In this document: positions 538 to 63,493 of the stretch, piece by piece
Layout: each line of letters starts with the position of its first letter
Position numbering within the stretch: position 1 is the first letter of the stretch
Assembly: GCF_006438965.1 (NCBI RefSeq)
Contig: NZ_RCZM01000001.1
Location: 435,097-499,096, forward strand
Direction: 5' to 3'
DNA length: 64,000 nt
From: Pedococcus bigeumensis
Lineage (GTDB): Bacteria; Actinomycetota; Actinomycetes; Actinomycetales; Dermatophilaceae
Translations under genes and position numbers: made by a program
The notes under the pieces: model-generated
Database searches by the model: none
Told to the model about the DNA's origin: nothing
The model's input: the letters and a program-made list of their open reading frames with translations, nothing else

Positions 538-3500
538 CTGACACTAGTCGCCTCGAGCGGCACCGGATCGCAGGTCGCCACCTGCAGGGCGGTTGCCACC
601 CCGCCACGGACGAGGTAGCCGCGACCAGGCAAGGCAGCACGGTCGACTGGCACCCGCACGCCGAACACGTCCGCCTCAGCCGGGCTTGCCGGACCAAGCA
701 TGATGCCGGTCCGGTGTCGCGCCAGCTCGACCGCGAGGCCGCGGTACTGCACCGAAAGGACGCCTGCATCTGAGCCGCCCACGATCAGACCACCGTCGCG
801 GTCGACCAGCGCGGCCAGCTGCTTGAGCGCCGACTCGACCGGGGTGTCGAGCAGCTCATCGGCGTTGTCCACCAGTACCGCCAGGTCCGGCACCGCCCGG
901 CGCAGTGCCATGAGCTCACCCGGCTGCGCGGGGTCGTCGCACCACACCACCTGCGGGTCGTCGCGAAGGGTCCCCCACGGACCAGGCCGCGTGGCGACGA
1001 CCGCGACCCGACGGTTGCGAGCAAGCAGGCCGACGGCTAGTGCTGTGAGGGTGGTCGAGACACCAGCACCGTTGCTGCCGCTCACGATCCACCGGCGGCC
1101 ATCACGGGTTGGGGACAGTCCCAGGGAAGTCAGCTCGTCGCCGCCGAGTCCGAGCAGCACGGTGTCGTCGGGCCCGTCAGGACGGGGCAGTGATGCTGCG
1201 TCGACCCGCCGCGGGAGCGGGTCGACCCGCCACGGCAGGCGGGTCGTGTGGGTCGCGTGCCCCGCCTCGGTCCGCCCGGACGACGGTGGGAGGGCGACCT
1301 GGACCTCGGTGCCGTCGAGCAGCACCCCCCGACCTGGTGGCTGGTGGGTGGGTAGGGCCTTCGCCGGCAGACCCGCGAGCACCGCATCGGTCCGGTCCGC
1401 GAGCCGCAGCAGGACACGGTGGGTCAGTGCCGAGGCTGCGCGGCCGACCAGGAGGGCCCGGTCACCGGCCAGGACTCCCGTGAGCCCGACTCCTGCGCCC
1501 TCCCGGAGCACCCCCAGCAGCCTCTCGACGAGGGCGCCGTGCGTGACGTCGTCGGTCCGTTGGGCGAGGACGTCCCAGTCGTCGACGAGGAGGAGCAAGG
1601 CGGGCGGCGCCACGGGGTCTCCCGCGTGCCACCACTCGGCGAAGGTGGCGTGGCGACTGGCGGCGACCTGCTGCCGGCGGTCCGCCACGTCGACCGAGAG
1701 CCGGGCGACCAGCCGCTGGAGACGTGGCAGGTCGTCCCACACCGCATGGCTGCCGCAGTGGGGCAACGACTCGACGCCGGACAGCGAACCTCCGCTCACG
1801 GCATACACGTGCAGGTGTGCCGGGTCGACGGCGGACGCGGCCCGACGGGCCACTGTCAGCAGGGCGGTGCTGCGGCCGCTTCCTGACGTGCCAGAGAAGC
1901 CCCAGTGCCCTGGCGCGGCGAGGTCGACCTCGAGGGGCCACTGACGTTGCGCCGCAGGTTCGTCCGCGAGTCCGATGGCGACACGGAAGGCAGACTCGGC
2001 GGGTGGCAGGGACTCCGCCGCGAGCTGCGTCGGCAGGGCCGCCAGCCACGGGCTGGGAGCCGGGCGCGCACCAATGAGGACGGCAGCCCCCGACACGACG
2101 TGGACGACGGTGGCCAGATCCGTGGTCACCGTTTCGTGTTCGTCCGTAGGGTCCGGCCACGGCGCCGACGTGCGGTCCCACTCCACCACCCTGACGCGTA
2201 TGCCGCGTGGCTCGGTTGCGCGGGAACGTCCCCCCGCGTGCGCCGCCTGGAACGCCACGAGCGAGCCACCACCGGCACGGGCGTAGCCGCGGCCGGGTAC
2301 GGCCCGGTCCAGCCCGGCGGCATCAGGGGTGTCGATGACGTCGTCGGAGTCGGCCCGGTCGCGGACCCGAAGGGCGATGCGCAGGTTCACGTTGGCCTTG
2401 ATGTCGGCCGTCACGACACCGGCGGGCCGTTGCGTCGCCACGACGACATGGACGCCCAGCGACCTCCCGAGAGCGGCGACGCGGACCATCCCGTCGACGA
2501 ACTCAGGGAGCTCCTCGGCCAGCGCCCGGAACTCGTCGATGACGATCACCAGCCGCGCCAAGGGGGAGGCGCTGGCCGACGACGAGGACTGGTAGGAAAC
2601 GAAGTCCGCTACATCAGCCTCGGCGAAGAGGCGCTCCCGGCGCTTGAGCTCGGCGGTCAGTGAGGCGAGGGCGCGGTCTGCGAGGTGGTCGTCGAGGTCG
2701 GTGACCAGGCCCGAGACATGGGGCAGGTTGTCGCACTCGCGGAAGGCGGCGCCGCCCTTGTAGTCGATCAGGACGAAGGAGAGGTGCTCGGGACGGTTGT
2801 GGAGCGCCAGCGACGCGACCAGGCTGCGCAGCAGCTCGGACTTGCCCGCACCGGTGGTGCCGGCCACCAGGACGTGGGGGCCGTCGGTGGCCAGGTCCAC
2901 CGTGAACGGACCATCGGTGGTCCGGCCCACGGGCACCGTCGTGCGGTGCGGGCGTCGCGCCCAGGTGCGAGCGGCGTTGGCCGCGCTGAGCCCGTCGGCG
3001 CTGTCGGGGTCGGTCAACAGCTCGGCAAGCCCGAGAGAGGTCGGCAGTGAGCTGTCCTGGGCTCCCGGGGTCGCGTCGCGAAGTGGGGCAAGTCCCCGGG
3101 AGAGCCGGTCGGCCCACCACGGGCCGACCAGGTCGACGACCAGGTCGGTGGCCGCACCACCCGGAAGGTGCAGCGAGGCGCCGGCGGGCGCGGTCAGGTC
3201 GACGACCGCTCCGGCCTCGGACGGCAGCTCGGCACGGTCGTCGTTGAGCGCCAGGACACAGATGCCGACGGAGGGGCCGTGCTCGAGGACCTCGGCGAGG
3301 TAGGGGACGCCACGCAGGGCTGTCGCCCCGTCCAGGACGACGACCGTGCGGGGTCCGGACCAGGGTTTCCCAGCCGGTGTCGACGTGGTCCGGCGCGTGC
3401 TGACCCGATGGGCCAGCTCGGTGACCGCACGCCGGGCGGTGGAGTCGGCGTCCAGGCTGGCGACCCACAGTGCGCCCGCTCGGCCGTCCGGGCGGCGGAC

Positions 3501-4913
3501 ATGGGGGAGTCGGCTCAGCCATGACCAGCTGTCGTCGGCTCGCCCGCCCCCCGCGATGAGGACCAGGTCGAGATCGAGGGGCGAGTGCAGCGTGACGAGC
3601 TGGCCGACGACGGCGCGGAGCAGCGCCAGCACCGCAGTGCGGTCGCCGCAGACACCGAGGACCCCGATGTCAGCCAACGGCAGGGCACATGGAACCCGTT
3701 CCAGCGCAGGGTGTTCCGGAGCCGGATCGCCCGGGGGACGAATGACCCGCAGGGCAGCGGGCGTGGTGCACCGCCCGATGCTGACCGTGAGTGCATCGAC
3801 GTCCGCGCGCCGCCGTTCCCAGAGCCGGGCCGTGGGCATCGTCGCGATCGCGAGGGTCTCGGCGGGATCCGGCAGCGACCGTCGTAACGTCCGGGCCTCC
3901 TCGGCGCAGGCGGCCACCACCCGCTCGCGGGCGCTGGCGAGATGACGCAGGTATGCCGCGTGCTCCACGGCATACCTGCGTCTGCTCCCCACGCGGTCAC
4001 TGAGGGTGCTGCCCGCCATGAGGATGGGACTCATCAGCGCGAAGGCGAGCATCATCGGTCCGAAGAAGATGGCCATCACGGCTGCGAACGGAACGGGCAG
4101 CGCCATCGCGATCCACGGCGCGCCGGTGCGGCGAGGCGGATCGGGCGGTATCGGAAGCGCGATCGACACCGGCGTGGGAGGGGCGAGGAGACGAGGTCGT
4201 CGGTTGACGGCTCGGGTCCCGTCCGCCCTCGCGGTGCAGGCGGCGGGCACGGCACCGGCCGGGCGCAGCACCAGAAGGGTGTCGCCGACGCGGACGACCG
4301 TACCGACGACCAGGGACTGCGGTTCGGCGCCGACCGGTGCGTCGTCGAGGTAGGTGCCATTGGTCGAACCCAGGTCCGCGAGCGTGATGGCGTCGGCGGT
4401 GACGCGGATGGACGCGTGCAGTCGGGAGAGGCCCGGGTCGTCGAGACAGACGGTGGCCTCCTCGGAGCGACCCAGGGTGTGGACACCGGGAGCGAGCTCG
4501 ACCGTCCGGCCGGCGTCGGGTCCGTGGACGATCGCCAGTGCCACGGGGGTGCGTTGGGTGACCCGGGTTGCGGGGAGTGCGAGAGCCGTGCGGCAGCCCA
4601 GCGTGATCGCCGCTCCGTCGACGAGGGGGTCGCGGCCCACGGGTGCGTCGTCGGCGAGCAGGACACCGCCAACCCACATCGCCGGGGCCTGAAGGGCGCC
4701 GTGGTTGGACGCGGGTGCGAGGGTGCCTGCGAGGGTGCCTGCGAGGGTGCCTGCGAGGGTGCCTGCGAGGGTGCCTGCGAGGGTGCCTGCGAGGGCGTCG
4801 GCGAGCTCGCGCGCCGTGGAGCCCCGGGGAGCCTCGACCTGCACCTCGAGGGGACCCGTCGAGGGCGAGGCCAGGTCTGTGGACCGCTGCACGACGGTCA
4901 GCTGGAGTCGCAT
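531..4913 (-). CDS. FHA-domain FtsK/SpoIIIE (EccC/EssC-like) membrane ATPase
   Basis: The 1460-residue protein starts with a ubiquitin-like region (about 1-110). A six-fold AGTL repeat interrupts it at residues 42-65. Next comes an FHA phosphothreonine-binding domain (about 125-216; GRS 148-150, SRLH 163-166, GSTNGT 182-187), a two-helix membrane hairpin (about 264-300) and three FtsK-type ATPase modules. Module 1 has a full Walker A (GTTGAGKSE, Lys691), Walker B (VIVIDEF) and ATQRPAG motif. Modules 2 and 3 have degenerate Walker A loops (GTSGSGRST with Arg at about 1014; GSNGAGVST with Val at about 1285). This plan is that of type VII secretion motor proteins EssC/EccC, where the first ATPase is usually the active one. 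No WXG100, EccB, EccD or EccE gene is visible. It is divergent from the Tad pilus operon. A role in protein translocation is inferred; substrate unknown. Confidence 0.85.
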   Translation of the reverse strand: MRLQLTVVQRSTDLASPSTGPLEVQVEAPRGSTARELADALAGTLAGTLAGTLAGTLAGTLAGTLAPASNHGALQAPAMWVGGVLLADDAPVGRDPLVDGAAITLGCRTALALPATRVTQRTPVALAIVHGPDAGRTVELAPGVHTLGRSEEATVCLDDPGLSRLHASIRVTADAITLADLGSTNGTYLDDAPVGAEPQSLVVGTVVRVGDTLLVLRPAGAVPAACTARADGTRAVNRRPRLLAPPTPVSIALPIPPDPPRRTGAPWIAMALPVPFAAVMAIFFGPMMLAFALMSPILMAGSTLSDRVGSRRRYAVEHAAYLRHLASARERVVAACAEEARTLRRSLPDPAETLAIATMPTARLWERRRADVDALTVSIGRCTTPAALRVIRPPGDPAPEHPALERVPCALPLADIGVLGVCGDRTAVLALLRAVVGQLVTLHSPLDLDLVLIAGGGRADDSWSWLSRLPHVRRPDGRAGALWVASLDADSTARRAVTELAHRVSTRRTTSTPAGKPWSGPRTVVVLDGATALRGVPYLAEVLEHGPSVGICVLALNDDRAELPSEAGAVVDLTAPAGASLHLPGGAATDLVVDLVGPWWADRLSRGLAPLRDATPGAQDSSLPTSLGLAELLTDPDSADGLSAANAARTWARRPHRTTVPVGRTTDGPFTVDLATDGPHVLVAGTTGAGKSELLRSLVASLALHNRPEHLSFVLIDYKGGAAFRECDNLPHVSGLVTDLDDHLADRALASLTAELKRRERLFAEADVADFVSYQSSSSASASPLARLVIVIDEFRALAEELPEFVDGMVRVAALGRSLGVHVVVATQRPAGVVTADIKANVNLRIALRVRDRADSDDVIDTPDAAGLDRAVPGRGYARAGGGSLVAFQAAHAGGRSRATEPRGIRVRVVEWDRTSAPWPDPTDEHETVTTDLATVVHVVSGAAVLIGARPAPSPWLAALPTQLAAESLPPAESAFRVAIGLADEPAAQRQWPLEVDLAAPGHWGFSGTSGSGRSTALLTVARRAASAVDPAHLHVYAVSGGSLSGVESLPHCGSHAVWDDLPRLQRLVARLSVDVADRRQQVAASRHATFAEWWHAGDPVAPPALLLLVDDWDVLAQRTDDVTHGALVERLLGVLREGAGVGLTGVLAGDRALLVGRAASALTHRVLLRLADRTDAVLAGLPAKALPTHQPPGRGVLLDGTEVQVALPPSSGRTEAGHATHTTRLPWRVDPLPRRVDAASLPRPDGPDDTVLLGLGGDELTSLGLSPTRDGRRWIVSGSNGAGVSTTLTALAVGLLARNRRVAVVATRPGPWGTLRDDPQVVWCDDPAQPGELMALRRAVPDLAVLVDNADELLDTPVESALKQLAALVDRDGGLIVGGSDAGVLSVQYRGLAVELARHRTGIMLGPASPAEADVFGVRVPVDRAALPGRGYLVRGGVATALQVATCDPVPLEATSVRW
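3944..3982. repeat. Perfect 15-bp intragenic inverted repeat made of two GTATGCCG words
   Basis: GACGCAGGTATGCCG at 3944-3958 is exactly complementary to 3968-3982, with a 9-base loop. The arms contain the words at 3951 and 3968 in opposite orientation. It lies inside the FHA-FtsK gene and is translated as RRYAVEHAAYLRHL just after the membrane hairpin, so a strong hairpin has been built inside coding DNA by choice of AGG, TAT GCC and GCA TAC codons. Confidence 0.8.
4717..4788. repeat. Six perfect 12-bp tandem repeats (AGTL repeat in protein)
   Basis: The unit GCGAGGGTGCCT is repeated six times without change and a diverged unit follows at 4789-4800. The unit length is a multiple of three. 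The repeat encodes (Ala-Gly-Thr-Leu)x6 near the N-terminus of the FHA-FtsK protein, so copy-number change by slippage would keep the frame. It is not a CRISPR array: there are no spacers. Confidence 0.9.
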
Positions 4914-4973: not shown

Positions 4974-5080
4974 CGGGCGGCGGACTGCCCGATTTCGCCC
5001 TAGTATGCCGCTGACGTCCGCATACGAGGTTAGACGTGGGGTTGGCCTCGACGCGGTGGAGACGTCAGGGGGAGGGTGAT

Positions 5081-6304
5081 GTGGACGCGGTCATGACCGT
5101 CGAGTCCGAGGTGCGGGAGCTGATCCGGCGTTCCGGGGTCGACCCTGCCCGGGACGTCGTGGAGCTGGATCGCCTGGTGCGCGACGCGGTGGCCGACTAC
5201 GACGAGCGCTCGCTGCACGGCAGCCTGCCCGCGCTCGCCAACATCGAGGACGCCGTGAAGTCGGTGAAGGATGCGGTCGCGGGGTTCGGTCCGCTCCAGC
5301 CGTACTTCGACGACCCCGACGTCGAAGAGATCTGGATCAACGAGCCGACCAAGGTGTTCATCGCGCGTGGCGGCACCGCCGAGCTGACGACTACGATGCT
5401 CACCGCCGACGGCGTCCGCGACCTCGTGGAACGGATGCTCAAGACGAGCGGCCGCCGGGTCGACCTGTCGAGCCCTTTCGTCGACGCGGTCCTGCCCGAC
5501 GGGTCGCGGCTGCACGTCGTCATCCCCGACATCACCCGGGCACACTGGTCGGTCAACATCCGCAAGTTCGTGGTGCGGGCCTCCCACCTCGACGACCTCG
5601 TCGGACTCGGCACCCTGACTCCGCACGCGGCGCGGTTCCTCGGCGCCGCAGTCGCGTCCGGGCTCAACATCCTCGTGGCCGGCGGCACCCAGGCCGGCAA
5701 GACCACCCTGCTCAACTGCCTGAGTGCTGCCATCCCGCCACGCGAACGGGTGGTGACCTGTGAAGAGGTCTTCGAGCTGAAGATCCCCCTGCGGGATGTG
5801 GCGTCGATGCAGTGCCGACAGCCGAGTCTGGAAGGCACCGGGGAGATCCCGTTGCGGCGGCTGGTCAAGGAGGCGCTGCGGATGCGCCCGTCGCGCATCA
5901 TCGTCGGCGAGGTGCGTCAGGCGGAGAGCCTCGACCTGCTGATCGCCCTCAACAGCGGGCTCCCGGGCATGTGCACCATCCACGCCAACAGCGCTCGCGA
6001 GGCCATCACGAAGATGTGCACGCTGCCGCTGCTGGCCGGGGAGAACGTCGGCAGCCGGTTCGTCGTGCCCACCGTCGCGGGGTCCATCGACATCGTCGTG
6101 CACGCCGCCCTCGAGCACGACGGCGTCCGCCGGGTGCGCGAGATCGTGGCGGTGCCCGGGCGGGTCGAGGGTGACGTCGTCGAGACGGCCGACATCTTCA
6201 CCCAGCGCGAGGGTGTGCTGCGTCGTGCCGATGGTTTCCCGCCGCACACGGACCGGTTCCGACGGGCTGGTTACGACGTCGCAGCGCTGTTGGCGCAGGA
6301 GTGA
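5081..6304 (+). CDS. tadA: Tad/Flp pilus assembly ATPase TadA (CpaF family)
   Basis: TadA is the cytoplasmic secretion ATPase that powers Flp pilus assembly. The protein has the CpaF layout: an N-terminal all-alpha/PAS-like region including 'GPLQPYFDDPDVEEIWIN' (typical of CpaF), a Walker A GGTQAGKTTLL loop, an Asp-box-type stretch 'RVVTCEEVFELKI', a Walker-B-like 'RMRPSRIIVGEVR' and 'TIHANSAREAI' with the conserved His. I chose the GTG at 5081 (407 residues) because GGGAGG lies about 8 bases upstream. An upstream GTG at 5036 would add 15 residues without a better site. It heads a seven-gene pilus operon; tadB follows 4 bases after its stop. Confidence 0.92.
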   Translation: MDAVMTVESEVRELIRRSGVDPARDVVELDRLVRDAVADYDERSLHGSLPALANIEDAVKSVKDAVAGFGPLQPYFDDPDVEEIWINEPTKVFIARGGTAELTTTMLTADGVRDLVERMLKTSGRRVDLSSPFVDAVLPDGSRLHVVIPDITRAHWSVNIRKFVVRASHLDDLVGLGTLTPHAARFLGAAVASGLNILVAGGTQAGKTTLLNCLSAAIPPRERVVTCEEVFELKIPLRDVASMQCRQPSLEGTGEIPLRRLVKEALRMRPSRIIVGEVRQAESLDLLIALNSGLPGMCTIHANSAREAITKMCTLPLLAGENVGSRFVVPTVAGSIDIVVHAALEHDGVRRVREIVAVPGRVEGDVVETADIFTQREGVLRRADGFPPHTDRFRRAGYDVAALLAQE

Positions 6305-6308
6305 CACC

Positions 6309-7175
6309 GTGACCGGAATCGTCGTAGGGCTGCTGCTGGGGTGTGGTCTGTTCTGCCTCTGGTGGTCAGCCTGGGTGCCGCAGCCGAAGCAGTCGGGACC
6401 GCGTCGTACCTCCCTGATGGACCGGTTGCGCGACGAGCTGGTCCAAGCGGGCTATCAGTCGGTCGGACCACGCAGCCTGGTCGTGGCGTGCCTGATGGCG
6501 TTCGTGGTCGTAGGTCTGCTGGTCCTCGCGACCACGCGCGTGGGGCCGGTGGCCCTCTGTTTCGCCCTCATCGCGGGGTACGGACCCTTCGCCCTGGTGC
6601 GCATGCGGGCAAGGCGGCGGCGTGCGAACCTGCGCGAGCTGTGGCCGGACGCCGTCGACAACATCACTTCCGGCGTACGTGCCGGCCTGGCCCTGCCGGA
6701 GGCTCTCAGCCAGCTGGCGATCCGTGGGCCCGAGGAGCTGCGGCCGGCGTTTCGCGCCTTTGCGGAGGACTACCGGGCGAGTGGGCGGTTCCACGACTGC
6801 CTCGACCGGCTCAAGGACCGGCTCAGCGATCCGGTCGGCGACCGGCTCGTCGAGTCGCTCCGGATCGCCCGGGAGGTGGGCGGCAGCGACCTCGGCCGGC
6901 TGCTGCGCACCCTCTCGACCTTCCTGCGCGAGGACAGTCGGACCCGGTCCGAGCTGGAGACCCGCCAAGGGTGGACCGTTAACGCGGCCCGGCTCGCTGT
7001 CGCGGCACCCTGGATCGTCCTGGCGATGCTGTGCACCCGACCCGAGTCGATCCAGGCCTATGCGACCACGACCGGCACGCTGATCCTGCTCGTCGGCGCG
7101 GCGGTGTCGGCCGCGGCCTACCGGATCATGGTCTTCATCGGGCGGCTGCCCGAGGACGAACGAGTGCTGCGGTGA
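6309..7175 (+). CDS. tadB: Tad pilus inner-membrane platform protein TadB
   Basis: A 288-residue type II secretion F-domain protein. It opens with a membrane helix (GIVVGLLLGCGLFCLWW), has a second helix pair near residues 58-95, and then the cytoplasmic F domain with 'LPEALSQLAIRGPEELRPAF' and 'DRLVESLRIAREVGGSDLG', signatures of TadB. Two C-terminal helices end the protein. TadB and TadC form the membrane platform on which TadA acts. The GTG at 6309 is preferred because it begins 4 bases after tadA; the frame is open further upstream but only overlaps tadA. Confidence 0.9.
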   Translation: MTGIVVGLLLGCGLFCLWWSAWVPQPKQSGPRRTSLMDRLRDELVQAGYQSVGPRSLVVACLMAFVVVGLLVLATTRVGPVALCFALIAGYGPFALVRMRARRRRANLRELWPDAVDNITSGVRAGLALPEALSQLAIRGPEELRPAFRAFAEDYRASGRFHDCLDRLKDRLSDPVGDRLVESLRIAREVGGSDLGRLLRTLSTFLREDSRTRSELETRQGWTVNAARLAVAAPWIVLAMLCTRPESIQAYATTTGTLILLVGAAVSAAAYRIMVFIGRLPEDERVLR

Positions 7176-8104
7176 GCGCGTCGCTGGCTGGCGCGGCCAT
7201 CGGGTTCGCACTGGGGCTGGGGCTTCTCCTGGTTTGGGCCGGTCTGCCGCGCAACCGTCGGGCCACCCTCAACGACCGGCTGCTGCCCTACCTGCGCGAC
7301 GCGCCACGCCCATCGCGGCTGCTGGCCAGTCGCCAGGTCGGCGGGACCGGCGCCCTGCGGGTGTTGGCTGGGCCGGTGGTCGCCGATCTCGGCGGTCGCA
7401 TCGAGTCCATCCTCGGCGGTTCAGCGTCGGTCAAGCGACGACTGCTGCGAGCGGGCAAGGCTCCGGACGTCGACCGGTTCCGCGCCGAGCAGGTCCTGTG
7501 GGGTGCTGTAGGGCTGCTCGTCGGTCTCGTCCTCGGCAGCGTCATCTGGCTCGGCCAAGGCGGGTCGGTGGTTCGGGCGGTCCTCATCGTGCTGTGCAGC
7601 GTTGGCGTCGGCGTCGTTGCACGCGACCAGTGGCTCAGCCACGAGGCCAACGTGCGTGAGCAGCGGATGCTCAGCGAGTTCCCCACCATCGCCGAGCTAT
7701 TGGCCCTGGCCGTGGGCGCGGGCGAGGGCGCCGTGGGTGCGCTGGAACGCGTCTGCCGCCTCTCGCACGGCGAGCTGTCCGCCGAGCTCGGGCGCTGCCT
7801 CGCTGACGCGCGGGCCGGGGCCAACCTGCCGACGGCACTGCAGGGGCTGGCCGACCGCACCGGCCTGATGAGCCTCTCGAGATTCGTCGACGGCATGGTC
7901 ATCGCGGTCGAGCGGGGGACGCCCCTGGCCGACGTGCTCCGGGCACAGGCGCAGGACGTCCGTGAGACCGGGCGGCGTGCCGTCATGGAAGCCGGCGGCA
8001 AGAAGGAGATCGCGATGATGGTCCCCGTCGTGTTCCTCGTGCTGCCGATCACCGTCCTGTTCGCCGTCTTCCCGGGTTTCGCCTTCCTGCGGTTCTCGAT
8101 CTGA
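7172..8104 (+). CDS. tadC: Tad pilus inner-membrane platform protein TadC
   Basis: A 310-residue F-domain protein paired with TadB. Features are an N-terminal helix (ASLAGAAIGFALGLGLLLVW), a mid pair of helices (about residues 108-150), the F-domain motif 'LSEFPTIAELLALAVGAGEGAVGALERV', and a C-terminal helix ending in 'VLPITVLFAVFPGF', as in TadC. The GTG start overlaps the tadB stop (GTGA), a coupled start. Together with TadA and TadB it forms the pilus extrusion machine. Confidence 0.9.
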   Translation: MSASLAGAAIGFALGLGLLLVWAGLPRNRRATLNDRLLPYLRDAPRPSRLLASRQVGGTGALRVLAGPVVADLGGRIESILGGSASVKRRLLRAGKAPDVDRFRAEQVLWGAVGLLVGLVLGSVIWLGQGGSVVRAVLIVLCSVGVGVVARDQWLSHEANVREQRMLSEFPTIAELLALAVGAGEGAVGALERVCRLSHGELSAELGRCLADARAGANLPTALQGLADRTGLMSLSRFVDGMVIAVERGTPLADVLRAQAQDVRETGRRAVMEAGGKKEIAMMVPVVFLVLPITVLFAVFPGFAFLRFSI

Positions 8105-8157
8105 CCTCCACCAGCACTTCTGATCTGCCACCAGCCACAGCACACGAGAGGAACCTC

Positions 8158-8367
8158 ATGACCACCCTTCACCGATCCGTGGTGCGCGCTCAGCTCGCTG
8201 CGGCACGCGCCATCCGAGGCGGCAGCCGACGCAACGAGCGTGGCGACGTCCCGGGCTGGGTCCTGATCACGTTGATGACGGCTGGCCTGGTGGCGGCCCT
8301 GTGGGCAGTGGCCGAGGACCAGCTCAAGGCGCTGTTCACCGACGCGCTCAACAGCGCACGGCGGTAG
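8158..8367 (+). CDS. Short Flp-like pilin / DUF4244-type pilus protein
   Basis: The 69-residue protein has a basic leader of about 28 residues ending in RNERGD, then a single hydrophobic segment (VPGWVLITLMTAGLVAALWAVA) and a short amphipathic tail. This is the plan of actinobacterial Flp pilins, where a prepilin peptidase cuts at the Gly before the hydrophobic helix; here the candidate site is G|D next to the helix. A GAGAGG ribosome site lies 6-11 bases before the ATG. Its place between tadC and the TadE-like genes supports the major-pilin role. No prepilin peptidase gene is visible in the window. Confidence 0.8.
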   Translation: MTTLHRSVVRAQLAAARAIRGGSRRNERGDVPGWVLITLMTAGLVAALWAVAEDQLKALFTDALNSARR

Positions 8368-8370
8368 CTC

Positions 8371-8766
8371 GTGCGGTGGGCCGCGGCCAGACGGCGGGGC
8401 GAAGCAGGTGCTGCCATCGTCGACTTCGTCCTGGTCTCGGTGCTCGTGTCCGTGCTGTTCCTCGCCGTGTTCCAGGTCGGCGTGGCCCTGTACATTCGCA
8501 ACACCATCATCTCGTGTGCCTCCGAGGGCGCCCGCTTCGGCGCGCGAGCTGACGCTGACCCGGACGATGGGGCAGCCCGTACTCGCGAGCTGATCGATGC
8601 CTCGCTCTCGGCTCGGTTTGCCCAGGACGTCTCTGCCGAGGTCGAGGATGCAGGCGGCGTGCAGGTCGTGTCCGTGCACGTCCGGGCGCCGCTGCCCGTC
8701 CTAGGCCCCTTCGGTCCCGACAGCGGCTTCGACCTCGTGGGCCGGGCCTTCCTGGAGCGGCAGTGA
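8371..8766 (+). CDS. TadE-like pseudopilin
   Basis: A 131-residue protein with a short basic N-terminus, the TadE motif region 'GEAGAAIVDFVLVSVLVSVL' (Glu/Asp next to the helix start), one membrane segment, and a small extracytoplasmic domain. TadE-like minor pilins are processed and added to the Flp pilus. The GTG start lies 3 bases after the pilin stop, and the stop overlaps the next start (TGATG). Confidence 0.85.
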   Translation: MRWAAARRRGEAGAAIVDFVLVSVLVSVLFLAVFQVGVALYIRNTIISCASEGARFGARADADPDDGAARTRELIDASLSARFAQDVSAEVEDAGGVQVVSVHVRAPLPVLGPFGPDSGFDLVGRAFLERQ

Positions 8767-9230
8767 TGCTCGCCCTGCGTCGGCGACTCCTCGCCCTGAA
8801 GGCGGCGGGCGAGCATGGCAGCGCCATCGTGGAGTTCGTCTTCCTCGCCGTGCTGCTGATGGTGCCGCTCTTCTACCTCGTGATGACCTTGTCCCGGATC
8901 CAGGCAGGGGCGTATGCCGCGTCGACCGCGGCGCGCGAAGCCGGCCGGGCCTTCGTGACGGCTTCCGAGCCCGCGGCGGCCGAGGAGCGAGCTCTCGCCG
9001 CCGCACGGATCGCCTTCGAGGACCAAGGATTTGGCGTGGACGAGGCGCAGCTGACGATGAAGTGTGACGGCACCCCGTGCCTGCGCCCAGATGGTCGGAT
9101 CGAGATGTCCACGACGGTCACGGTGCCGCTACCCCTGGTCCCCTCGTTCGTCCGCGGCGTGGTGCCGCTGGAGGTGCCTGTCACCGCCAGCCACGTGGCG
9201 GTCGTCGACCGGTTCAGGGGACAGCCATGA
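8766..9230 (+). CDS. TadE/TadG-like pseudopilin
   Basis: A 154-residue protein with the TadE-type signature 'GSAIVEFVFLAVLLMVPLFY' at residues 17-36 and an extracytoplasmic domain that contains two cysteines (KCDGTPC), possibly a disulfide. It is a second minor pilin in the operon. ATG 8766 overlaps the previous stop by one base; a GTG one codon earlier is also possible. Residues '[13 protein letters not shown]' match the helix-following segment common to TadE/TadG families. Confidence 0.82.
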   Translation: MLALRRRLLALKAAGEHGSAIVEFVFLAVLLMVPLFYLVMTLSRIQAGAYAASTAAREAGRAFVTASEPAAAEERALAAARIAFEDQGFGVDEAQLTMKCDGTPCLRPDGRIEMSTTVTVPLPLVPSFVRGVVPLEVPVTASHVAVVDRFRGQP

Positions 9231-9697
9231 AAGAGGCCTGCCGTCGCCGCTTGCACCGTGGCGGCGGGGAAGCCGGTCAGGTGACGCTCTTGGTCCTCGG
9301 CTTCAGCATCGTGGCGATCCTGCTCATCGTCGGGACGGTCGCGGTCACCTCCGTCCAGCTGTCCCGGATGAGGCTGCTCGACGCGGCCGACGGCGCGGCC
9401 CTGGATGCGGCGGACTCCCTGGACCTCGGTGCCTACCGGGGCGGGCTGGGGGAGGCGGTCGCCGTCAACGACGCCACGGTCCGCGGGACGGCGGTGCAGT
9501 ACCTCGCCGAGCGACCGAGGCCGGAGAGCATGCTCGCCTGGCAGGTGGCTCCTGGTACGGGTAGCCCGGACGGACAGACCGCGGTGGTCCGCATCTCCGG
9601 CCAGGCCGATCTGCCGCTGGTCGGCGGTCTGCTCGACACCATGGGCGGCTCGGTGACGATCACCGTCGAGTCCCGCGCTCGCGCCAACCTCGAGTAG
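9227..9697 (+). CDS. TadG-like pilus-assembly protein
   Basis: A 156-residue protein starting at an ATGA overlap with the previous gene. It has a membrane segment at about residues 17-42 (VTLLVLGFSIVAILLIVGTV) followed by 'QLSRMRLLDAADGAALDAADSL', the pattern of the TadG N-terminal domain, and a short extracytoplasmic domain. It lacks the long VWA domain of full TadG. It is the last gene of the tad operon; a hairpin follows about 100 bases downstream. Confidence 0.75.
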   Translation: MKEACRRRLHRGGGEAGQVTLLVLGFSIVAILLIVGTVAVTSVQLSRMRLLDAADGAALDAADSLDLGAYRGGLGEAVAVNDATVRGTAVQYLAERPRPESMLAWQVAPGTGSPDGQTAVVRISGQADLPLVGGLLDTMGGSVTITVESRARANLE

Positions 9698-9798
9698 CGA
9701 CGCCGTAGTCCCTGAGCGGGCGCGCCGACGGCGCCGCGGACGGCACCGCGGACGGCCACAAGTGGGCCGGGAGGCCACCACGCGGCATACCCCAGTGT

Positions 9799-11112: not shown

Positions 11113-12075
11113 GTGGCTCCCCGCACCGTCGACGTCCCTGCCCTGGTCGAATCGGCCAGGGCAGGGTCGCCTCGTGCCGTGGCGCGGTTGATCTCGCTCG
11201 TCGAGGACGGCCATCCGGCGCTGCGTGAGGTGATGGCAGCCCTCGCACCCCACACTGGCCGAGCGCACATCATCGGGATCACCGGCAGTCCGGGCGTCGG
11301 CAAGTCCACGTCCACCAACGCGCTCGTCGGCGCACTGCGCAAGCAGGGCAAGCGGATCGGCATCCTCGCCGTCGACCCGTCCTCGCCGTTCTCCGGTGGT
11401 GCGCTGCTCGGTGACCGGGTGCGGATGCAGGACCACGCCCTCGACCCCGACGTCTACATCCGCTCGATGGCCAGCCGCGGTCACCTGGGCGGGCTCTCGT
11501 GGACCACGCCCCAGGCGCTGCGCGTCCTGGACGCGGCCGGGTGCGACGTGATCCTTGTCGAGACCGTCGGCGTGGGCCAGTCCGAGGTCGAGGTCGCTGG
11601 CCTCGCTGACACGACGATCGTGCTGCTGGCGCCCGGCATGGGTGACGGCATCCAGGCCGCCAAGGCGGGCATCCTCGAGATCGGCGACCTCTTCGTCGTC
11701 AACAAGGCCGACCGCGACGGCGCCGACGCGACGGTCCGCGACATCCGGCACATGATCTCCCTGGGTGACCGCACTGAGCCCAACCTGTGGCGCCCGCCGG
11801 TGCTGAAAACCGTTGCGCAGCAAGGCCAGGGGATCGACGAGGTCATCGAGGCCATCAAGAAGCACACCGCGTGGATGGAGGAGTCCGGCGCGCTGCGTGA
11901 GCGTCGCATCCGACGCGCAGGAGACGAGATCGAGTCGATCGCGCTGCAGGCCCTGCGCGCCAAGATGGGCGACCTGCGCCACGGCAACGGCGTGGACGAG
12001 CTCGCCGCCGCCGTCGTGGACGGCACGACCGACCCGTATGCCGCGGCTGACCAGATCGTGGCCGCCCTCGCCTGA
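11113..12075 (+). CDS. meaB: MeaB-type GTPase, chaperone of B12-dependent acyl-CoA mutase
   Basis: A G3E-family GTPase of 320 residues. It has GSPGVGKST (Walker A, about residues 59-67), '[19 protein letters not shown]' (family signature), [10 protein letters not shown] (G3 region) and NKAD (G4). MeaB protects and reactivates adenosylcobalamin-dependent mutases such as methylmalonyl- or isobutyryl-CoA mutase. The GTG start directly follows the thiolase stop. A mutase large subunit is encoded 11.4 kb away at 23509, a likely client, although another mutase may exist outside the window. Confidence 0.93.
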
Positions 12076-17521: not shown

Positions 17522-17584
17522 GCCGGCTGCGGCAACCCACCGGGCGCGTGCCGCGGTGCCGGCCACGCGGCATACGGTGGGGTC

Positions 17585-23357: not shown

Positions 23358-23392
23358 CCCAGCCACCCGGCATACCCACCCTTGCTCGCCCT

Positions 23393-51596: not shown

Positions 51597-52387
51597 GCGA
51601 CGGCCCCTCCAGCAGCGTCGTCTCGCTCGAGGTCGAGGGGGGGATCGCGACGATCCGGCTCAACCGCCCGCCGATGAACGCGCTCAACGCCGAGGTGCAG
51701 TCCGCCCTGTCCGCCGCCGCGATCGAGGCCGGTCAGCGACGCGACGTCTACGGCGTCATCCTCTACGGCGGCGAGAAGGTCTTCGCAGCGGGTGCGGACA
51801 TCAAGGAGATGGAGAGGATGTCATACACGGACATGGCCGACCACTCCGGCTCCCTCCAGGACTTCACCCGCACCATCGCCAAGATCCCGAAGCCGACCGT
51901 CGCCGCCATCACCGGCTACGCCCTCGGTGGCGGGTGCGAGGTGGCGCTCGCGTGCGACTTCCGGGTCGCCGCCAAGAACGCCAAGCTGGGCCAGCCCGAG
52001 ATCCTGCTCGGCGTCATCCCCGGCGCCGGCGGCACGCAGCGACTGGCTCGCCTGGTCGGGCCGGCCAAGGCCAAGGACATCGTCTTCTCCGGACGTTTCG
52101 TGTCCGCTGACGAGGCACTCGCGATCGGGCTCGTCGACGAGGTCGTCGAGGCCGAGGACGTGTATGCCGCCGCGAAGGCGCGGCTCGCGCCGTACGTCGG
52201 CGGACCGGCCTACGCCATCCGCGCCGCCAAGGAGGCCATCGACCGAGGCCTGGAGACCGACCTCGAGACCGGCCTGGAGATCGAGCGGATGCTGTTCAGC
52301 TCCCTGTTCGCCACCAAGGACCGCGAGATCGGGATGAAGTCGTTCGTCGAGAACGGTCCCGGCAAGGCGAAGTTCGAGGGCGCCTGA
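51593..52387 (+). CDS. Enoyl-CoA hydratase/isomerase family protein
   Basis: A 264-residue crotonase-fold enzyme. The oxyanion-hole segments are 'FAAGADIKEM' (residues about 62-71) and 'GYALGGGCEVALACDFR', and the two catalytic glutamates are expected at GGCEVAL and 'QPEILLGVIPGAGGTQRLAR'; both Glu are present, supporting hydration of trans-2-enoyl-CoA. Next to the methyltransferase gene (3 bases apart). The same neighbourhood, echA17 beside methyltransferase genes, exists in Mycobacterium tuberculosis (from memory). Confidence 0.92.
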   Translation: MSDGPSSSVVSLEVEGGIATIRLNRPPMNALNAEVQSALSAAAIEAGQRRDVYGVILYGGEKVFAAGADIKEMERMSYTDMADHSGSLQDFTRTIAKIPKPTVAAITGYALGGGCEVALACDFRVAAKNAKLGQPEILLGVIPGAGGTQRLARLVGPAKAKDIVFSGRFVSADEALAIGLVDEVVEAEDVYAAAKARLAPYVGGPAYAIRAAKEAIDRGLETDLETGLEIERMLFSSLFATKDREIGMKSFVENGPGKAKFEGA

Positions 52388-53378: not shown

Positions 53379-54044
53379 GTGACTTCGGCAGCAAACGCGG
53401 ACATGTCGCCGTCCGACCACGGCGAGCGCGCCCGGCACGGTCCCACCGGGTCGGTCCGGCCGCTTGCCTGGTTCCGCTGGGTCGGCTGGGCGATGGCCAA
53501 CAAGGCGTTCACGCGGCACCACCTGCTGAGCTACCTGCGGATGGCGCGAGCCAGTGCCCGCTACCCGTCGCTGCGGTTCGAGGGCCCCTGCTTCATCGGG
53601 CCGGACGTCCGGTTCGAGGTGCGCGAGGGCTACGGCCGCCTCGTGGTGGGCGCCTACACCCACTTCGGGGCGCACGCCCGGGTGCGGGCCCACGAGGGGA
53701 CCCTGCGGATCGGTGCGAAGTCGGTCATCGGCATCCGCAACACCCTCAACTGCTGGATCGACATCTCGATCGGCGAGGCCTGCCTCTTCGGTGACGACAT
53801 CTACGTCTGCGACTTCGACCACGTGACGACCTCGCTCGAGGTGCCGATCAAGGACCAGGGCATCGTGAAGTCGCCGGTCCGGATCGGTGACGACGTCTGG
53901 CTCGGCACCAAGGTCGTCGTCACGCGAGGCACCGACATCGGTGACCACTGCGTCGTCGCGGCCTCGGCCGTCGCTCGTGGTGAGTACGCGCCGCGGTCGA
54001 TCATCGCCGGCATACCGGGCAGGGTCGTGAAGGTGCGCACCTGA
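53379..54044 (+). CDS. Hexapeptide-repeat (left-handed beta-helix) acyltransferase, Rv3034c-like
   Basis: A 221-residue protein with consecutive hexapeptide turns such as 'CFIGPDVRFEVREGYGRLVV', 'TLRIGAKSVIGIRNTLNCWI' and 'VRIGDDVWLGTKVVVTRGTD', ending 'PRSIIAGIPGRVVKV' as in maltose/galactoside O-acetyltransferases. The His in 'CDFDHVTTS' is the candidate catalytic base. An acyl group is moved from acyl-CoA to a sugar hydroxyl, in mycobacteria probably on methylated glucan. The IAGIPG segment uses an ATA codon inside a GTATGCCG-complement word at 54008. GTG start. Convergent with the GH57 gene. Confidence 0.88.
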   Translation: MTSAANADMSPSDHGERARHGPTGSVRPLAWFRWVGWAMANKAFTRHHLLSYLRMARASARYPSLRFEGPCFIGPDVRFEVREGYGRLVVGAYTHFGAHARVRAHEGTLRIGAKSVIGIRNTLNCWIDISIGEACLFGDDIYVCDFDHVTTSLEVPIKDQGIVKSPVRIGDDVWLGTKVVVTRGTDIGDHCVVAASAVARGEYAPRSIIAGIPGRVVKVRT

Positions 54045-54061: not shown

Positions 54062-55597
54062 TCAGGTGGCGTGCGGAACGGTCACGCGCGCGTCGAGTGA
54101 GGGGAACGCCCCGTCCCTGGCCGCCAACCGGGAGGCCTCGGCGCGTGCGTCGTCACGGCGGCCGTCCTGGACGAGCTGGGCCAGCTGGTGGAAGTCGCGG
54201 CGGTGCAGCTCGGCCCGTCGCCTGGCGTAGTCGACCGACTGCCCCCGCGTCACGAGGAACGCCCAGTCGCTCGACAGGGCATGGAACAGCGACGTGAGCA
54301 GCTGGTCGAGGTCGGGCCTGCGGGTCTGCAGCCGACCGGCGGCGCGTTCCCTGCCGACGAGGTCGAGCCAGCGACGTTGCAGCCACTCGTTCTCGTGCGC
54401 GATCTGCCGCACGCCCGGGCCGTCCCAGACCGAGAAGTCCTTACCGGCACCCCACGACCCGGGCCCCAGGTCCAGCTCGCCCGCAACGTGTCCGGCGGCG
54501 AGCGCCTGCCCGACGGTGGTGACCGTGACACCGGCGGCGCGCAGCGCACGGATCGCCTTGCCCAGGAAGGCCGGGCCTTCGTGCCACCAGTGACCGAACA
54601 GCTCGGTGTCGTATGCCGCGACGACCAGTCCCGGGGTCCCGGTCACCTCGTGCGCGTGGCCGAGCCGCGCACGGACCGCGCTCACGAAGTGCTCCACGTC
54701 GGCGTCGACCTGGGCTGCTGCGGCGACGGGGTCGTAGGGCGACTTGTGCTCGACGCCCACGTCGGGCTCGGTGATGGCCCAGAGCCGGATGCCGGTGAAC
54801 TCCTCGCGGGCGTGGAAGTCGCGGTAGGCGGCGGCGCCGGGATACCCGCTGCGGGAGGACCAGATCAGGTTGGTGACGTCGAGGTCGCGGGGGACCGCCA
54901 ACAGGTCGCTCCCGGCAACCCGCCACGCACCGTGCGGGTGGCCGCCGGCGTCTCCGACGGTCTGCTCGTCGACGACGAAGTGGCTGATCCCGGCCGAGGT
55001 GAACGCGGACGCCAGCGCGGGGGACCACGCGCACTCCGGCGCCCAGATGCCTCTGGGACGGACCCCGTGGCGCCAGGCGCTGTCGGCCAGACCTGAGTCG
55101 AGGGCCGTCGCCACGAACTCGGGCTGGAGCAGCGGCAGCAACGGATGCGCGGCCGGACCGCCCAGCAGCTCGACCACGCCGCCGTCGCGCAGCGAACGCA
55201 GCACGGGAGCGCCTCCAGCCCGCCAGCGCGACTCGAGCAGCCCCTGGACCCGGCTCGCGGCGGCATACTCGTGGGCAGCGGTCCCGCGACGGTGGGGGTC
55301 GTCGTCGAAGCCCATCTCACGGGCCCGCTGCTGCCACAGGCCGACCCACGTCTGGGTGTCGGCTCGCATGCGCGGGTGGTCGAGCTGGGCGGCCAGCACG
55401 GGGGTGACCCCGAGGGTGAGGACGTCGCGATGACCTTCTGCCGCAAGGGAGTCCAGCTCGGCGACCAATGGGACGTAGGACTCGGCCCAGGCCTGGAACA
55501 GCCATTCCTCGCCCAGTGGCCACACCCCGTGACCGGGCAGCCAGGGGAGGTGTGAGTGCAGGACGAGGCAGAAGGAGCCCGGCACCGGAGGAGTCAC
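54062..55597 (-). CDS. Glycoside hydrolase family 57 protein, branching-enzyme type (Rv3031-like)
   Basis: A 511-residue GH57 enzyme. It starts 'FCLVLHSHLPWLPGHGVWPL' (motif 1), has 'RGIWAPECAWSP' with the nucleophile Glu (motif 3) and 'VVAAYDTELFGHWWHEGPAF' with the acid/base Asp (motif 4), and a C-terminal helical domain. This set of motifs is that of AmyC-type alpha-1,4-glucan branching enzymes. In mycobacteria Rv3031 is placed in methylglucose-lipopolysaccharide synthesis. So the window has two branching enzymes of unrelated fold (GlgB and this one). Followed by the MmcQ-like gene upstream on the same strand. Confidence 0.9.
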   Translation of the reverse strand: MTPPVPGSFCLVLHSHLPWLPGHGVWPLGEEWLFQAWAESYVPLVAELDSLAAEGHRDVLTLGVTPVLAAQLDHPRMRADTQTWVGLWQQRAREMGFDDDPHRRGTAAHEYAAASRVQGLLESRWRAGGAPVLRSLRDGGVVELLGGPAAHPLLPLLQPEFVATALDSGLADSAWRHGVRPRGIWAPECAWSPALASAFTSAGISHFVVDEQTVGDAGGHPHGAWRVAGSDLLAVPRDLDVTNLIWSSRSGYPGAAAYRDFHAREEFTGIRLWAITEPDVGVEHKSPYDPVAAAAQVDADVEHFVSAVRARLGHAHEVTGTPGLVVAAYDTELFGHWWHEGPAFLGKAIRALRAAGVTVTTVGQALAAGHVAGELDLGPGSWGAGKDFSVWDGPGVRQIAHENEWLQRRWLDLVGRERAAGRLQTRRPDLDQLLTSLFHALSSDWAFLVTRGQSVDYARRRAELHRRDFHQLAQLVQDGRRDDARAEASRLAARDGAFPSLDARVTVPHAT

Positions 55598-56753: not shown

Positions 56754-57521
56754 CTACAGCTCCACCACGGCGAACAGGTCGAGACAGGCGTCCTCGGGAT
56801 CGCCCAGGAGGAAGTCGTCGACCGTCACCGACCCGACCACGCCATGCAGGTCGTCGCGCCAGTCGTCGGGCGCCATGTCCTGTTGCGCCACGACGATCGA
56901 CCCGTACTCGTCCTCCCAGCGCAGCAACCGCTCGCCGTGACCGAGGCCCAGCACCGTCACCCCCGCGCCAGGTAGCCAGCGACCCAGCTCACCGGCCAGC
57001 TCGTCGGCGTCGTACTCGCGGCAGTGGTAGAGGTTCGTCGGCCGCTCCCGCCGCCCGAGCCCGGGGGAGAAGGTCGCCCGGTTCGGCGTCGACAGCACCA
57101 CGACACCGCCCGCGCGCGTGACGCGGGCCAGCTCGCGCACGTAGTCGTCCGGCGTCCAGATGTGCTCGAGCACCTGGAGCGAGACCGTCAGGTCCGCCGC
57201 GCCCGTCGCCAGTGGCAGCGCCGTCAGCCCACCCCGGAGGTATGCCGTCCGCTCACCTCCGTGGGTCCGTGCGGCGTGCGACGTGGTCGCTGAGTCGTAG
57301 TCGACGCCGACCACGCACAAGTCCGGCCACGCCTCGCGAAGGAGGCCCGCGGCATACCCTTCACCGCAGCCGGCGTCGAGGACGACGCGTGGCGTGGTCG
57401 GAACCCAGCCGGGGACGGCGGCATACCCGGCCTCGTGGCGACGGAACCAGTAGTTCTCGGCCGCGATGCCAGGGATGGTGCGCTCACCGGTGATGGTCAG
57501 CGCGGTGGGTGGTGTGGGCAC
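56754..57521 (-). CDS. SAM-dependent methyltransferase, Rv3030-like
   Basis: A 255-residue class I methyltransferase. Its opening 'LTITGERTIPGIAAENYWFR' followed by RHE is a hallmark of the mycobacterial Rv3030 family, which is implicated in 6-O-methylation of glucan in methylglucose lipopolysaccharide. The SAM motif is VVLDAGCGEGYAAG; 'LQVLEHIWTPDDYVRELARV' and 'GGVVVLSTPNRATFSPG' follow. GTG 57521 has GGAGG 5 bases upstream. Divergent from etfB. Confidence 0.9.
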   Translation of the reverse strand: MPTPPTALTITGERTIPGIAAENYWFRRHEAGYAAVPGWVPTTPRVVLDAGCGEGYAAGLLREAWPDLCVVGVDYDSATTSHAARTHGGERTAYLRGGLTALPLATGAADLTVSLQVLEHIWTPDDYVRELARVTRAGGVVVLSTPNRATFSPGLGRRERPTNLYHCREYDADELAGELGRWLPGAGVTVLGLGHGERLLRWEDEYGSIVVAQQDMAPDDWRDDLHGVVGSVTVDDFLLGDPEDACLDLFAVVEL

Positions 57522-59563: not shown

Positions 59564-59585
59564 GTATGCCGGTCACCCGGCATAC
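59564..59585. terminator. Second hairpin after etfA made of paired GTATGCCG words
   Basis: GTATGCCGG (59564-59572), loop TCAC, CCGGCATAC (59577-59585). A perfect 9-bp stem directly following the classic terminator. The arms are two opposed GTATGCCG words, the same design as at 43352-43391 and 3944-3982. Confidence 0.7.
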
Positions 59586-63441: not shown

Positions 63442-63493
63442 CCGACGCGTTGCTGCCGGGCGGAGTCAGCCGGCCACACGGCATACGCCGGTG

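What the first reader, a model, noticed from the sequence alone, without database searches (positions are those of the whole stretch)
1799..63486. An 8-base word, GTATGCCG, is about 17-fold over-represented across the whole window
By hand I find 39 exact copies (positions in the feature list), split 20/19 between orientations, spread through functionally unrelated genes and intergenic spaces. A 70% G+C composition model gives about 2. It is too frequent, too exact and too evenly spaced to be a codon-pair effect alone, since it also occurs between genes and as inverted pairs. Both-strand balance argues against Chi- or KOPS-like polarity. It behaves like a DNA-uptake sequence, a nucleoid/segregation mark or a repair or methylation target. 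I know of no described word of this sequence in actinobacteria.
Basis: partly seen in the sequence, partly recalled or inferred. Interest (0 to 1): 0.88.

Follow-up and report, generated by a model that had tools for sequence, protein, structure and literature searches.

The report
Actinobacterial DNA-uptake-like genome watermark
Many bacteria of one actinobacterial family carry thousands of copies of one exact 8-letter DNA word, with one-letter variants in sister genera, and the pattern resembles the 'self' tags that Neisseria and Haemophilus use to choose which free DNA to take up, which would be new for this branch of bacteria.

Summary
Confirmed, and stronger than claimed. The window has 39 copies of GTATGCCG (0.88 expected); the genome, a Phycicoccus-like Dermatophilaceae, has 2551 against 74 of the reversed word. 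The excess survives a synonymous-codon null (180 against 15.7), is 2.6-fold denser between genes and shows no strand polarity. Spacing is more even than random. Seven intergenic inverted pairs sit just after stop codons in 380 kb. Copies are conserved as exact words between congeners (60% against 23%). Three small contigs hold 2 copies where 22 are expected. In the family 108 of 186 genomes are enriched; 22 genomes of 19 other families are not. Sister genera carry one-letter dialects: GGATGCCG, GAATGCCG, GTATGCGG, GTATGNCG. This matches DNA uptake sequences of Neisseriaceae and Pasteurellaceae. Best explanation: a self-DNA watermark read in natural transformation, perhaps by a Tad-pilus/ComEA/ComEC machine. 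Against it: near-miss words are not enriched, the machinery persists in many wordless genomes, no receptor was found, uptake is untested. I saw no report of it in the searches listed.

The parts
1799..1806 (-). GTATGCCG copy, in gene 531-4913 (-)
2198..2205 (+). GTATGCCG copy, in gene 531-4913 (-)
3951..3958 (+). GTATGCCG copy, left arm of an inverted pair inside gene 531-4913
3968..3975 (-). GTATGCCG copy, right arm of the pair inside gene 531-4913
5003..5010 (+). GTATGCCG copy, intergenic, upstream of tadA
8912..8919 (+). GTATGCCG copy, in second TadE gene
9783..9790 (-). GTATGCCG copy, intergenic, after the Tad cluster
12036..12043 (+). GTATGCCG copy, coding
12227..12234 (-). GTATGCCG copy, coding
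13688..13695 (-). GTATGCCG copy, coding
15529..15536 (+). GTATGCCG copy, coding
17568..17575 (-). GTATGCCG copy, intergenic
17830..17837 (+). GTATGCCG copy, coding
21945..21952 (+). GTATGCCG copy, coding
23368..23375 (-). GTATGCCG copy, intergenic
25550..25557 (-). GTATGCCG copy, coding
27333..27340 (+). GTATGCCG copy, coding
28396..28403 (-). GTATGCCG copy, coding
29491..29498 (+). GTATGCCG copy, coding
32587..32594 (-). GTATGCCG copy, coding
33505..33512 (+). GTATGCCG copy, coding
36054..36061 (+). GTATGCCG copy, coding
36665..36672 (-). GTATGCCG copy, coding
39891..39898 (+). GTATGCCG copy, coding
43355..43362 (+). GTATGCCG copy, left arm of intergenic hairpin, 38 bp after a stop codon
43381..43388 (-). 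GTATGCCG copy, right arm of the hairpin between convergent genes 40728-43316 (+) and 43421-44281 (-)
45948..45955 (+). GTATGCCG copy, coding
49036..49043 (+). GTATGCCG copy, coding
50496..50503 (-). GTATGCCG copy, coding
52162..52169 (+). GTATGCCG copy, coding
54008..54015 (-). GTATGCCG copy, coding
54611..54618 (+). GTATGCCG copy, coding
55261..55268 (-). GTATGCCG copy, coding
57240..57247 (+). GTATGCCG copy, coding
57350..57357 (-). GTATGCCG copy, coding
57419..57426 (-). GTATGCCG copy, coding
59564..59571 (+). GTATGCCG copy, left arm of intergenic hairpin, 57 bp after the stop of an ETF-alpha gene
59578..59585 (-). GTATGCCG copy, right arm of that hairpin
63479..63486 (-). GTATGCCG copy, intergenic
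5081..9697 (+). Tad (Flp) pilus cluster: T2SSE ATPase (TadA) 5081-6304, two T2SSF proteins 6417-7175 and 7172-8104, TadE-like 8371-8766 and 8763-9230, TadE/G-like 9281-9697. Candidate uptake pilus; the link to the word is inferred
   Evidence: Pfam hits; TadA orthologue in 95 of 95 word- or dialect-bearing genomes of at least 89% completeness, absent in 12 of 68 others, two ambiguous genomes and the own genome left out

Best explanation
GTATGCCG is a self-recognition watermark of the uptake-sequence kind. Free DNA carrying the word is preferentially bound and imported during natural transformation by a cell-surface receptor (not identified), probably on a Tad/Flp pilus feeding ComEA and ComEC. 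Biased uptake plus homologous recombination spreads and restores exact copies across the chromosome; acquired DNA lacks them. When the receptor's preference drifts by one base, the word drifts with it, giving dialects. Some copies are reused in inverted pairs after genes, presumably as terminators. Shown here: abundance, codon-independence, no polarity, even spacing, post-stop pairs, conservation as exact words, scarcity on three small contigs of one genome, dialects, presence of comEA, comEC and Tad genes. Inferred: that the word is read during uptake, which machine reads it, and how copies spread.
For: 2551 copies against 74 reversed; no polarity. Coding 180 against codon null 15.7; intergenic 52 against 1.05. 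98 of 239 TAT codons lie in the word, and the codon-favoured GTACGCCG is depleted (17 against 52.9). Nine inverted pairs in the order word then complement against 1.39 expected, none in the other order; 7 intergenic, 8-80 bp after a stop; 4 of 5 folded are far more stable than shuffles. Conservation 537 of 892 against 1918 of 8318 control 8-mers; at 24 own-genome sites 16 above control and 3 below, p = 0.0005. Two copies in 36.2 kb on three small contigs, 21.8 expected. Dialects beyond the codon null: GGATGCCG 54/7.9, 32/9.6, 46/11.5; GAATGCCG 37/2.4; GTATGCGG 18/2.5; GTATGACG 32/3.8. GGATGCCG reaches 2099-4480 copies in 7 of 186 genomes, two of them also rich in GTATGCCG. ComEC in 180 of 186. 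TadA in 95 of 95 word/dialect genomes, missing in 12 of 68 others. Micrococcus luteus needs comEA/EC and tad loci for transformation and has no type IV pili (PMC12849477, passages).
Against: No uptake experiment exists here, and no report of competence in this family was seen (12 of 888 papers listed). One-mismatch words are not enriched as a set in the own genome (summing: 259 observed, about 256 expected), whereas they are in Haemophilus and Neisseria (PMC1939737, passages). ComEA, ComEC and Tad persist in many wordless genera, and ComEC and TadA in G065, G127 and G151, which lack the word though most of their genus-mates have it. Tad pilin identities to the window (20 loci) show no obvious link with word or dialect. 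In eight dialect genomes sampled (40-95 kb each) only 3 pairs were found in the expected order, 1 intergenic, and 5 in the other order. GTACGCCG as a dialect is weak: it also exceeds the codon null in the wordless G127 (13/4.4), G207 (8/3.3) and G033 (13/3.1). The Tad association ignores relatedness.
Confidence: 0.72

Rival explanations
1. The word is the target of an orphan DNA methyltransferase or other modifying or binding enzyme (HIP1-like) and is kept abundant for repair, epigenetic or nucleoid reasons, with no role in DNA uptake. Dialects reflect drift in the enzyme's specificity.
For: HIP1 shows that an 8-mer can be very abundant and linked to methyltransferases (PMC4390886, start of abstract and passages). 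A family-restricted word with one-letter dialects would also fit a drifting enzyme. Even spacing fits a chromosome-wide mark.
Against: GTATGCCG is not a palindrome, unlike HIP1. The idea does not by itself predict inverted pairs placed just after stop codons in one order only. No methyltransferase was tested for co-occurrence, so this is weak evidence.
Confidence: 0.15
2. A polar chromosome-processing signal (Chi-, KOPS- or segregation-like) read by a translocase or recombination nuclease.
For: Genome-wide, abundant, evenly spaced, intergenic as well as coding.
Against: Strand counts over 16 stretches are no more uneven than chance (chi-square 6.2); inverted pairs occur; whole genome 1264 against 1287.
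Confidence: 0.04
3. Primarily a transcription-terminator stem module that spread through the genome.
For: Seven intergenic inverted pairs lie 8-80 bp after a stop codon; 4 of 5 folded are far more stable than shuffles; intergenic density is 2.6 times coding density.
Against: Only 18 of 236 copies are in inverted pairs within 45 bp, 14 of them intergenic; 180 copies are inside genes; dialect genomes show few pairs.
Confidence: 0.04
4. A codon-pair, dipeptide or mutational-composition artefact.
For: Coding copies favour one reading: 98 of 180 lie in the frame that reads Tyr-Ala (G-TAT-GCC-G).
Against: Synonymous-codon null 15.7 against 180, intergenic 52 against 1.05; the favoured-codon version GTACGCCG is depleted; near background in 22 genomes of 19 other families of the order.
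Confidence: 0.01

Closest known systems
DNA uptake sequences (DUS) and dialects, Neisseriaceae (PMC3630211, passages)
   Same: Short word, thousands of copies, accumulation in the core genome, dialects by lineage, genomes using two dialects; inverted pairs suggested to be terminators (PMC7371117, passages).
   Different: Here a high-GC actinobacterial family; the type IV pilus marker PilM was found in 2 of 36 genomes, so there is no obvious home for a ComP-like pilin; one-mismatch words not enriched; uptake untested.
Uptake signal sequences (USS), Pasteurellaceae (PMC1939737 passages; PMC12616744 abstract)
   Same: Copies in and between genes with non-coding excess, no orientation bias, even spacing, about 10% as inverted repeats, lineage variants (as described in those passages).
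   Different: Unrelated word. The Haemophilus core lies in a 29 bp consensus with two less conserved regions; coding copies here show little beyond the 8 bases. Near-misses not enriched.
HIP1 (GCGATCGC), cyanobacteria (PMC4390886, start of abstract and passages)
   Same: Very abundant 8-mer over many genera.
   Different: HIP1 is palindromic and tied to methyltransferases; GTATGCCG is not palindromic and has base-substitution dialects.
Transformation of Micrococcus luteus by comEA/EC and tad loci (PMC12849477, passages)
   Same: Actinobacterium with comEA/comEC and tad loci; that species has no type IV pili.
   Different: The term 'uptake sequence' does not occur in the main text of that paper; other family.

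Membership tests
DUS/USS uptake sequences | Hundreds to thousands of genomic copies far above chance | tested here: met
   2551 against 74 for the reversed word; 39 against 0.88
DUS/USS uptake sequences | Copies in both orientations without chromosomal polarity | tested here: met
   16 stretches, chi-square 6.2; no complete chromosome tested
DUS/USS uptake sequences | In genes beyond codon effects, and denser between genes | tested here: met
   180 against 15.7; 1.36 against 0.53 per kb
DUS/USS uptake sequences | Some copies as inverted pairs after genes | tested here: met
   7 intergenic pairs in 380 kb of the own genome; in eight dialect genomes 3 pairs, 1 intergenic, and 5 in the other order
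DUS/USS uptake sequences | Lineage dialects differing by single bases | tested here: met
   shared LeuS site carrying GTATGCGG in G030
DUS/USS uptake sequences | Depleted in recently acquired DNA | tested here: met
   2 in 36.2 kb on three small contigs, 21.8 expected; transposases on two of them. One genome only; that the contigs were recently acquired is inferred
DUS/USS uptake sequences | One-mismatch variants also over-represented (reported for Haemophilus and Neisseria, PMC1939737) | tested here: not met
   sum of 24 variants: 259 observed, about 256 expected
DUS/USS uptake sequences | Type IV pilus machinery with a minor-pilin receptor | tested here: not met
   PilM in 2 of 36 family genomes; Tad and ComEA/ComEC genes instead; receptor not found
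DUS/USS uptake sequences | DNA with the word is taken up preferentially | not testable with these tools
   needs an experiment; this is the functional definition
HIP1-type palindromes | Palindromic word | tested here: not met
   GTATGCCG is not its own reverse complement (sequence itself)
HIP1-type palindromes | Associated methyltransferase | not tested
   no methyltransferase profile was run across the family
Chi/KOPS polar motifs | Strand bias along each replichore | tested here: not met
   no bias in 16 stretches of 20-64 kb

The most novel reading that the evidence does not exclude
Dermatophilaceae have their own, independently evolved self-recognition system for natural transformation: an uptake word with dialects, read by a Tad-pilus-based receptor in single-membrane bacteria, showing that sequence-marked bacterial sex arose a third time and without type IV pili.
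Probability: 0.55. Interest if true: 0.94.

Novelty: new variant of a known kind. Interest (0 to 1): 0.88.

Why it matters
A 2013 paper describes the need for short uptake sequences as unique to Neisseria and members of the Pasteurellaceae (PMC3630211, passages). A third, unrelated case in a Gram-positive family (53 genera sampled), with dialects, losses and mixed genomes, would make the question of why uptake words evolve testable by comparison. It also suggests a practical handle: adding the word to DNA may make these organisms transformable; the family includes polyphosphate-accumulating wastewater bacteria (PMC12978653, search listing).

Tried and rejected
Codon or dipeptide artefact: rejected. 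Chi/KOPS polarity: disfavoured. ComEC as diagnostic gene: 180 of 186 genomes have it, so uninformative. Type IV pilus as machine: PilM in 2 of 36 family genomes. Tad cluster make-up (20 loci against the window; one, wordless G012, gave no hit for the last gene) and ComEA/ComEC presence (a hit for each in 41 of 41 comEC loci) do not separate word-bearing from wordless genomes. Tad-type ATPases in 58 relatives and 30 chosen genomes (the list was capped) led to the window-TadA profile. There my E-value cut-off of 1e-57 is arbitrary; G155 and G161 (word-bearing, 2.3e-58 and 1.9e-60) were set aside as ambiguous. Without the completeness limit the table is 109 with and 1 without TadA (G139) among word/dialect genomes, 58 and 15 among the others (G205, just under the density cut-off, is among the 15). 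The Fisher p (1.5e-5) ignores relatedness. GTACGCCG and most GTATGCGG genomes counted as wordless in it.

Prophage depletion could not be tested: PF04860 portal in 0 of 36 family genomes. Of 19 genomes re-examined for words (20-80 kb each), 6 had a clear variant, 2 a weak one (GTACGCCG), 11 none. Later looks at wordless genomes gave two weak leads (GGTCTACG in G065, CGATGCGG in G126). For G029 and G012 and G024 my gene caller failed (300, 0 and 0 coding bases), so the codon null says nothing there. Outside the family only five genomes were looked at for other words.

Literature: one search found the letters of the word in 643 papers (20 listed) and its complement in 1; the titles and abstracts listed concern other subjects and I opened none of them. 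No listing showed a report of an uptake word in Actinobacteria. Lists are capped and the library holds only part of the literature. Opened, passages or outline only: PMC3630211, PMC12616744, PMC12849477, PMC2346458, PMC7371117, PMC4390886, PMC2843746, PMC1939737. That Chi and KOPS are polar, and that Actinobacteria have one membrane, is recalled.
Full report
OBSERVATION. The 39 copies of GTATGCCG are all present, 20 on one strand and 19 on the other; dinucleotide shuffles give 0.88 on average and never more than 4. It is the leading 8-mer of the window. The window lies in a 4.22 Mb genome that holds 1264 + 1287 copies; the same word read backwards occurs 35 + 39 times.

CODING AND INTERGENIC. 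In 380 kb of this genome (window plus L017-L032) I found 236 copies: 180 inside genes, 52 between genes, 4 at boundaries. Shuffling synonymous codons within each gene leaves 15.7 on average (maximum 24 of 60 shuffles); a second-order model gives 1.05 for the intergenic part. Density is 0.53 per kb in genes and 1.36 between them. In genes, 98 of 180 copies are in the frame that reads Tyr-Ala with the Tyr codon TAT; 98 of all 239 TAT codons in the sample lie in the word, against 2056 TAC codons overall. The version with the favoured codon, GTACGCCG, is depleted, 17 against 52.9. The excess is therefore not a by-product of codon use.

STRAND, SPACING, PAIRS. Strand counts over 16 stretches are no more uneven than chance (chi-square 6.2). 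Spacing is more even than random placement (CV 0.761 against 0.972, 0 of 2000 as low; window alone 0.728, 3%). Nine inverted pairs occur within 45 bp, 1.39 expected, all in the order word then complement; seven are intergenic and 8-80 bp after an upstream stop codon, including 43355/43381 and 59564/59578 in the window. I folded five of the seven as RNA: all form hairpins, four with z from -4.5 to -8.2, one (59564) only -2.25. Intergenic copies lean to GGTATGCCGCGTG, partly the stem of such pairs.

CONSERVATION. Between 11 congeners (comEC region for all, Tad region for 8), exact 8-of-8 identity at word sites is 537 of 892 against 1918 of 8318 for nearby 8-mers at shifts that keep the codon phase. 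These comparisons overlap and the genomes are related; for 24 distinct own-genome sites the means are 0.617 and 0.197, 16 above, 3 below (p = 0.0005). The mismatch spectrum is close to all-or-none: 60% exact and 15% one mismatch, against 23% and 31% in controls. In LeuS, sites at alignment columns 344, 857 and 1282 carry a word in 12, 12 and 16 of 36 sequences across several genera; the 14 sequences from wordless genomes have no GTATGCCG anywhere in LeuS. At 344 the GTATGCGG-dialect genome G030 has GTATGCGG. Two word-bearing genomes (G009, G025) have no copy in LeuS.

SCARCE ON SMALL CONTIGS. Three small own-genome contigs (36.2 kb, 64-66% G+C) have 2 copies where 21.8 are expected. C3 (0 copies) carries Mutator-family transposases and restriction-modification-type genes, C4 (0 copies) an IS116/IS110-type transposase. 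C2, with the 2 copies, was not searched for mobile genes. Two larger contigs, sampled at 20 kb each, have 14 and 13 copies. That the small contigs are recent arrivals is inferred.

DISTRIBUTION. A LeuS scan of named genomes, with whole-genome counts for 13 of them, ties the family to Dermatophilaceae/Intrasporangiaceae. Phycicoccus sp. Soil802 is G008, by identical counts and contig length, and G008 is of the window's genus. Terrabacter, Intrasporangium chromatireducens, two Ornithinimicrobium and a Tetrasphaera MAG are word-rich; Intrasporangium flavum is not (39 + 27). Of 186 family genomes, 108 reach 100 copies per Mb, in 31 of 53 genera; 25 genera are uniformly above, 22 uniformly below (dialect genera among them), 6 mixed. 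The 22 genomes of 19 other families of the order have 2-167 copies, 0.5 to 3.6 times their reversed-word control. On a LeuS tree of 49 sequences the word label needs 11 changes, at least 10 forced by well-supported branches. So gains, losses or dialect switches are frequent; I did not determine which.

DIALECTS. Word discovery in sister genera gave one-letter variants: of 19 genomes, clear in 6, weak in 2, none in 11. Coding counts against the codon null, then intergenic counts: GGATGCCG in G083 54/7.9 and 5, G202 32/9.6 and 13, G026 46/11.5 and 11; GAATGCCG in G022 37/2.4 and 11; GTATGCGG in G030 18/2.5 and 5; in G013 GTATGCCG 57/4.8, GTATGACG 32/3.8, GTATGGCG 25/3.7, GTATGTCG 15/3.0. GTACGCCG in G131 (29/7.1) and G059 (25/6.9) is weaker and is also raised in wordless genomes (G127 13/4.4, G207 8/3.3; G033 13/3.1), so I hold it as possible only. 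Genome-wide, GGATGCCG reaches 2099-4480 copies in G026, G071, G083-G086 and G202 (7 of 186) and 241-1336 in the rest; G085 and G086 are rich in both words.

MACHINERY. ComEC is found in 180 of 186 genomes, and ComEA beside it in 41 of 41 comEC loci examined, 36 of them of this family. PilM of type IV pili is found in 2 of 36 family genomes. The window holds a Tad/Flp cluster at 5081-9697. Its TadA has an orthologue in 95 of 95 word- or dialect-rich genomes of at least 89% completeness and is missing in 12 of 68 others, six genera being wordless and without it throughout (cut-off mine, two ambiguous genomes excluded, relatedness not corrected). So a Tad pilus may be necessary; it is not sufficient. 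Micrococcus luteus needs comEA/EC and tad loci for transformation and lacks type IV pili (PMC12849477, passages).

MECHANISM AND COMPARISON. The traits listed for known uptake sequences (non-coding excess, about 10% inverted repeats, no orientation bias, even spacing; PMC1939737, passages) and dialects (PMC3630211, passages) are met. Two usual traits are not: near-miss words are not enriched as a set (24 variants, 259 against about 256), and type IV pilus genes are mostly missing. The functional definition, biased uptake, is untested. I therefore say that it works like an uptake sequence (0.72) and do not file it as a proven member. The sharp word may mean a stricter receptor or rapid restoration of damaged copies by recombination; both are inference.

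RIVALS. A methyltransferase-linked mark like HIP1 remains possible (0.15); I tested no methyltransferase. Polar signals, terminators as the primary role and codon artefacts are disfavoured by the results above.

Noticed in passing
L224 (G000 contig C3, 1-14046): Word-free island with Mutator-type transposases at both ends, a type ISP specificity domain, a short N6-methylase match and a helicase/PLD restriction-like protein.
   Followed up: partly
L228, L229, L230 (G065): GGTCTACG (CGTAGACC) is dispersed, 25 copies in 60 kb, 19 coding against a codon null of 4.7, in a wordless genome of a word-bearing genus; possibly a new word. In the own genome it is 42 against 22.
   Followed up: partly
L183, L184 (G126): CGATGCGG 33 against 5.6 in coding DNA, none intergenic; shares the ATGC core of most dialects, may be a peptide effect.
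   Followed up: no
L123 (G005): ComEC is split over two matches in a word-rich Phycicoccus-genus genome; broken gene or assembly error.
   Followed up: no
G016, G115, G116 (genus g7): Wordless genus with almost no Tad-type ATPases: none over the cut-off in G016 and G116 (83% complete), one in G115.
   Followed up: partly
G004, G009, G027, G118, G158: TadA matches much weaker than in sister species, suggesting split or interrupted frames in word-rich genomes; not examined.
   Followed up: no
window 531-4913 (-): FHA plus FtsK/SpoIIIE-type protein of 1460 aa, resembling from memory the EccC-type motor of type VII secretion, with an inverted word pair inside its coding sequence.
   Followed up: no
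G011 and G180 (genus g2): GGATGCCG moderately raised (1336 and 1210 copies against 614-949 in the other ten genomes of the genus); perhaps a decaying or incipient dialect.
   Followed up: partly
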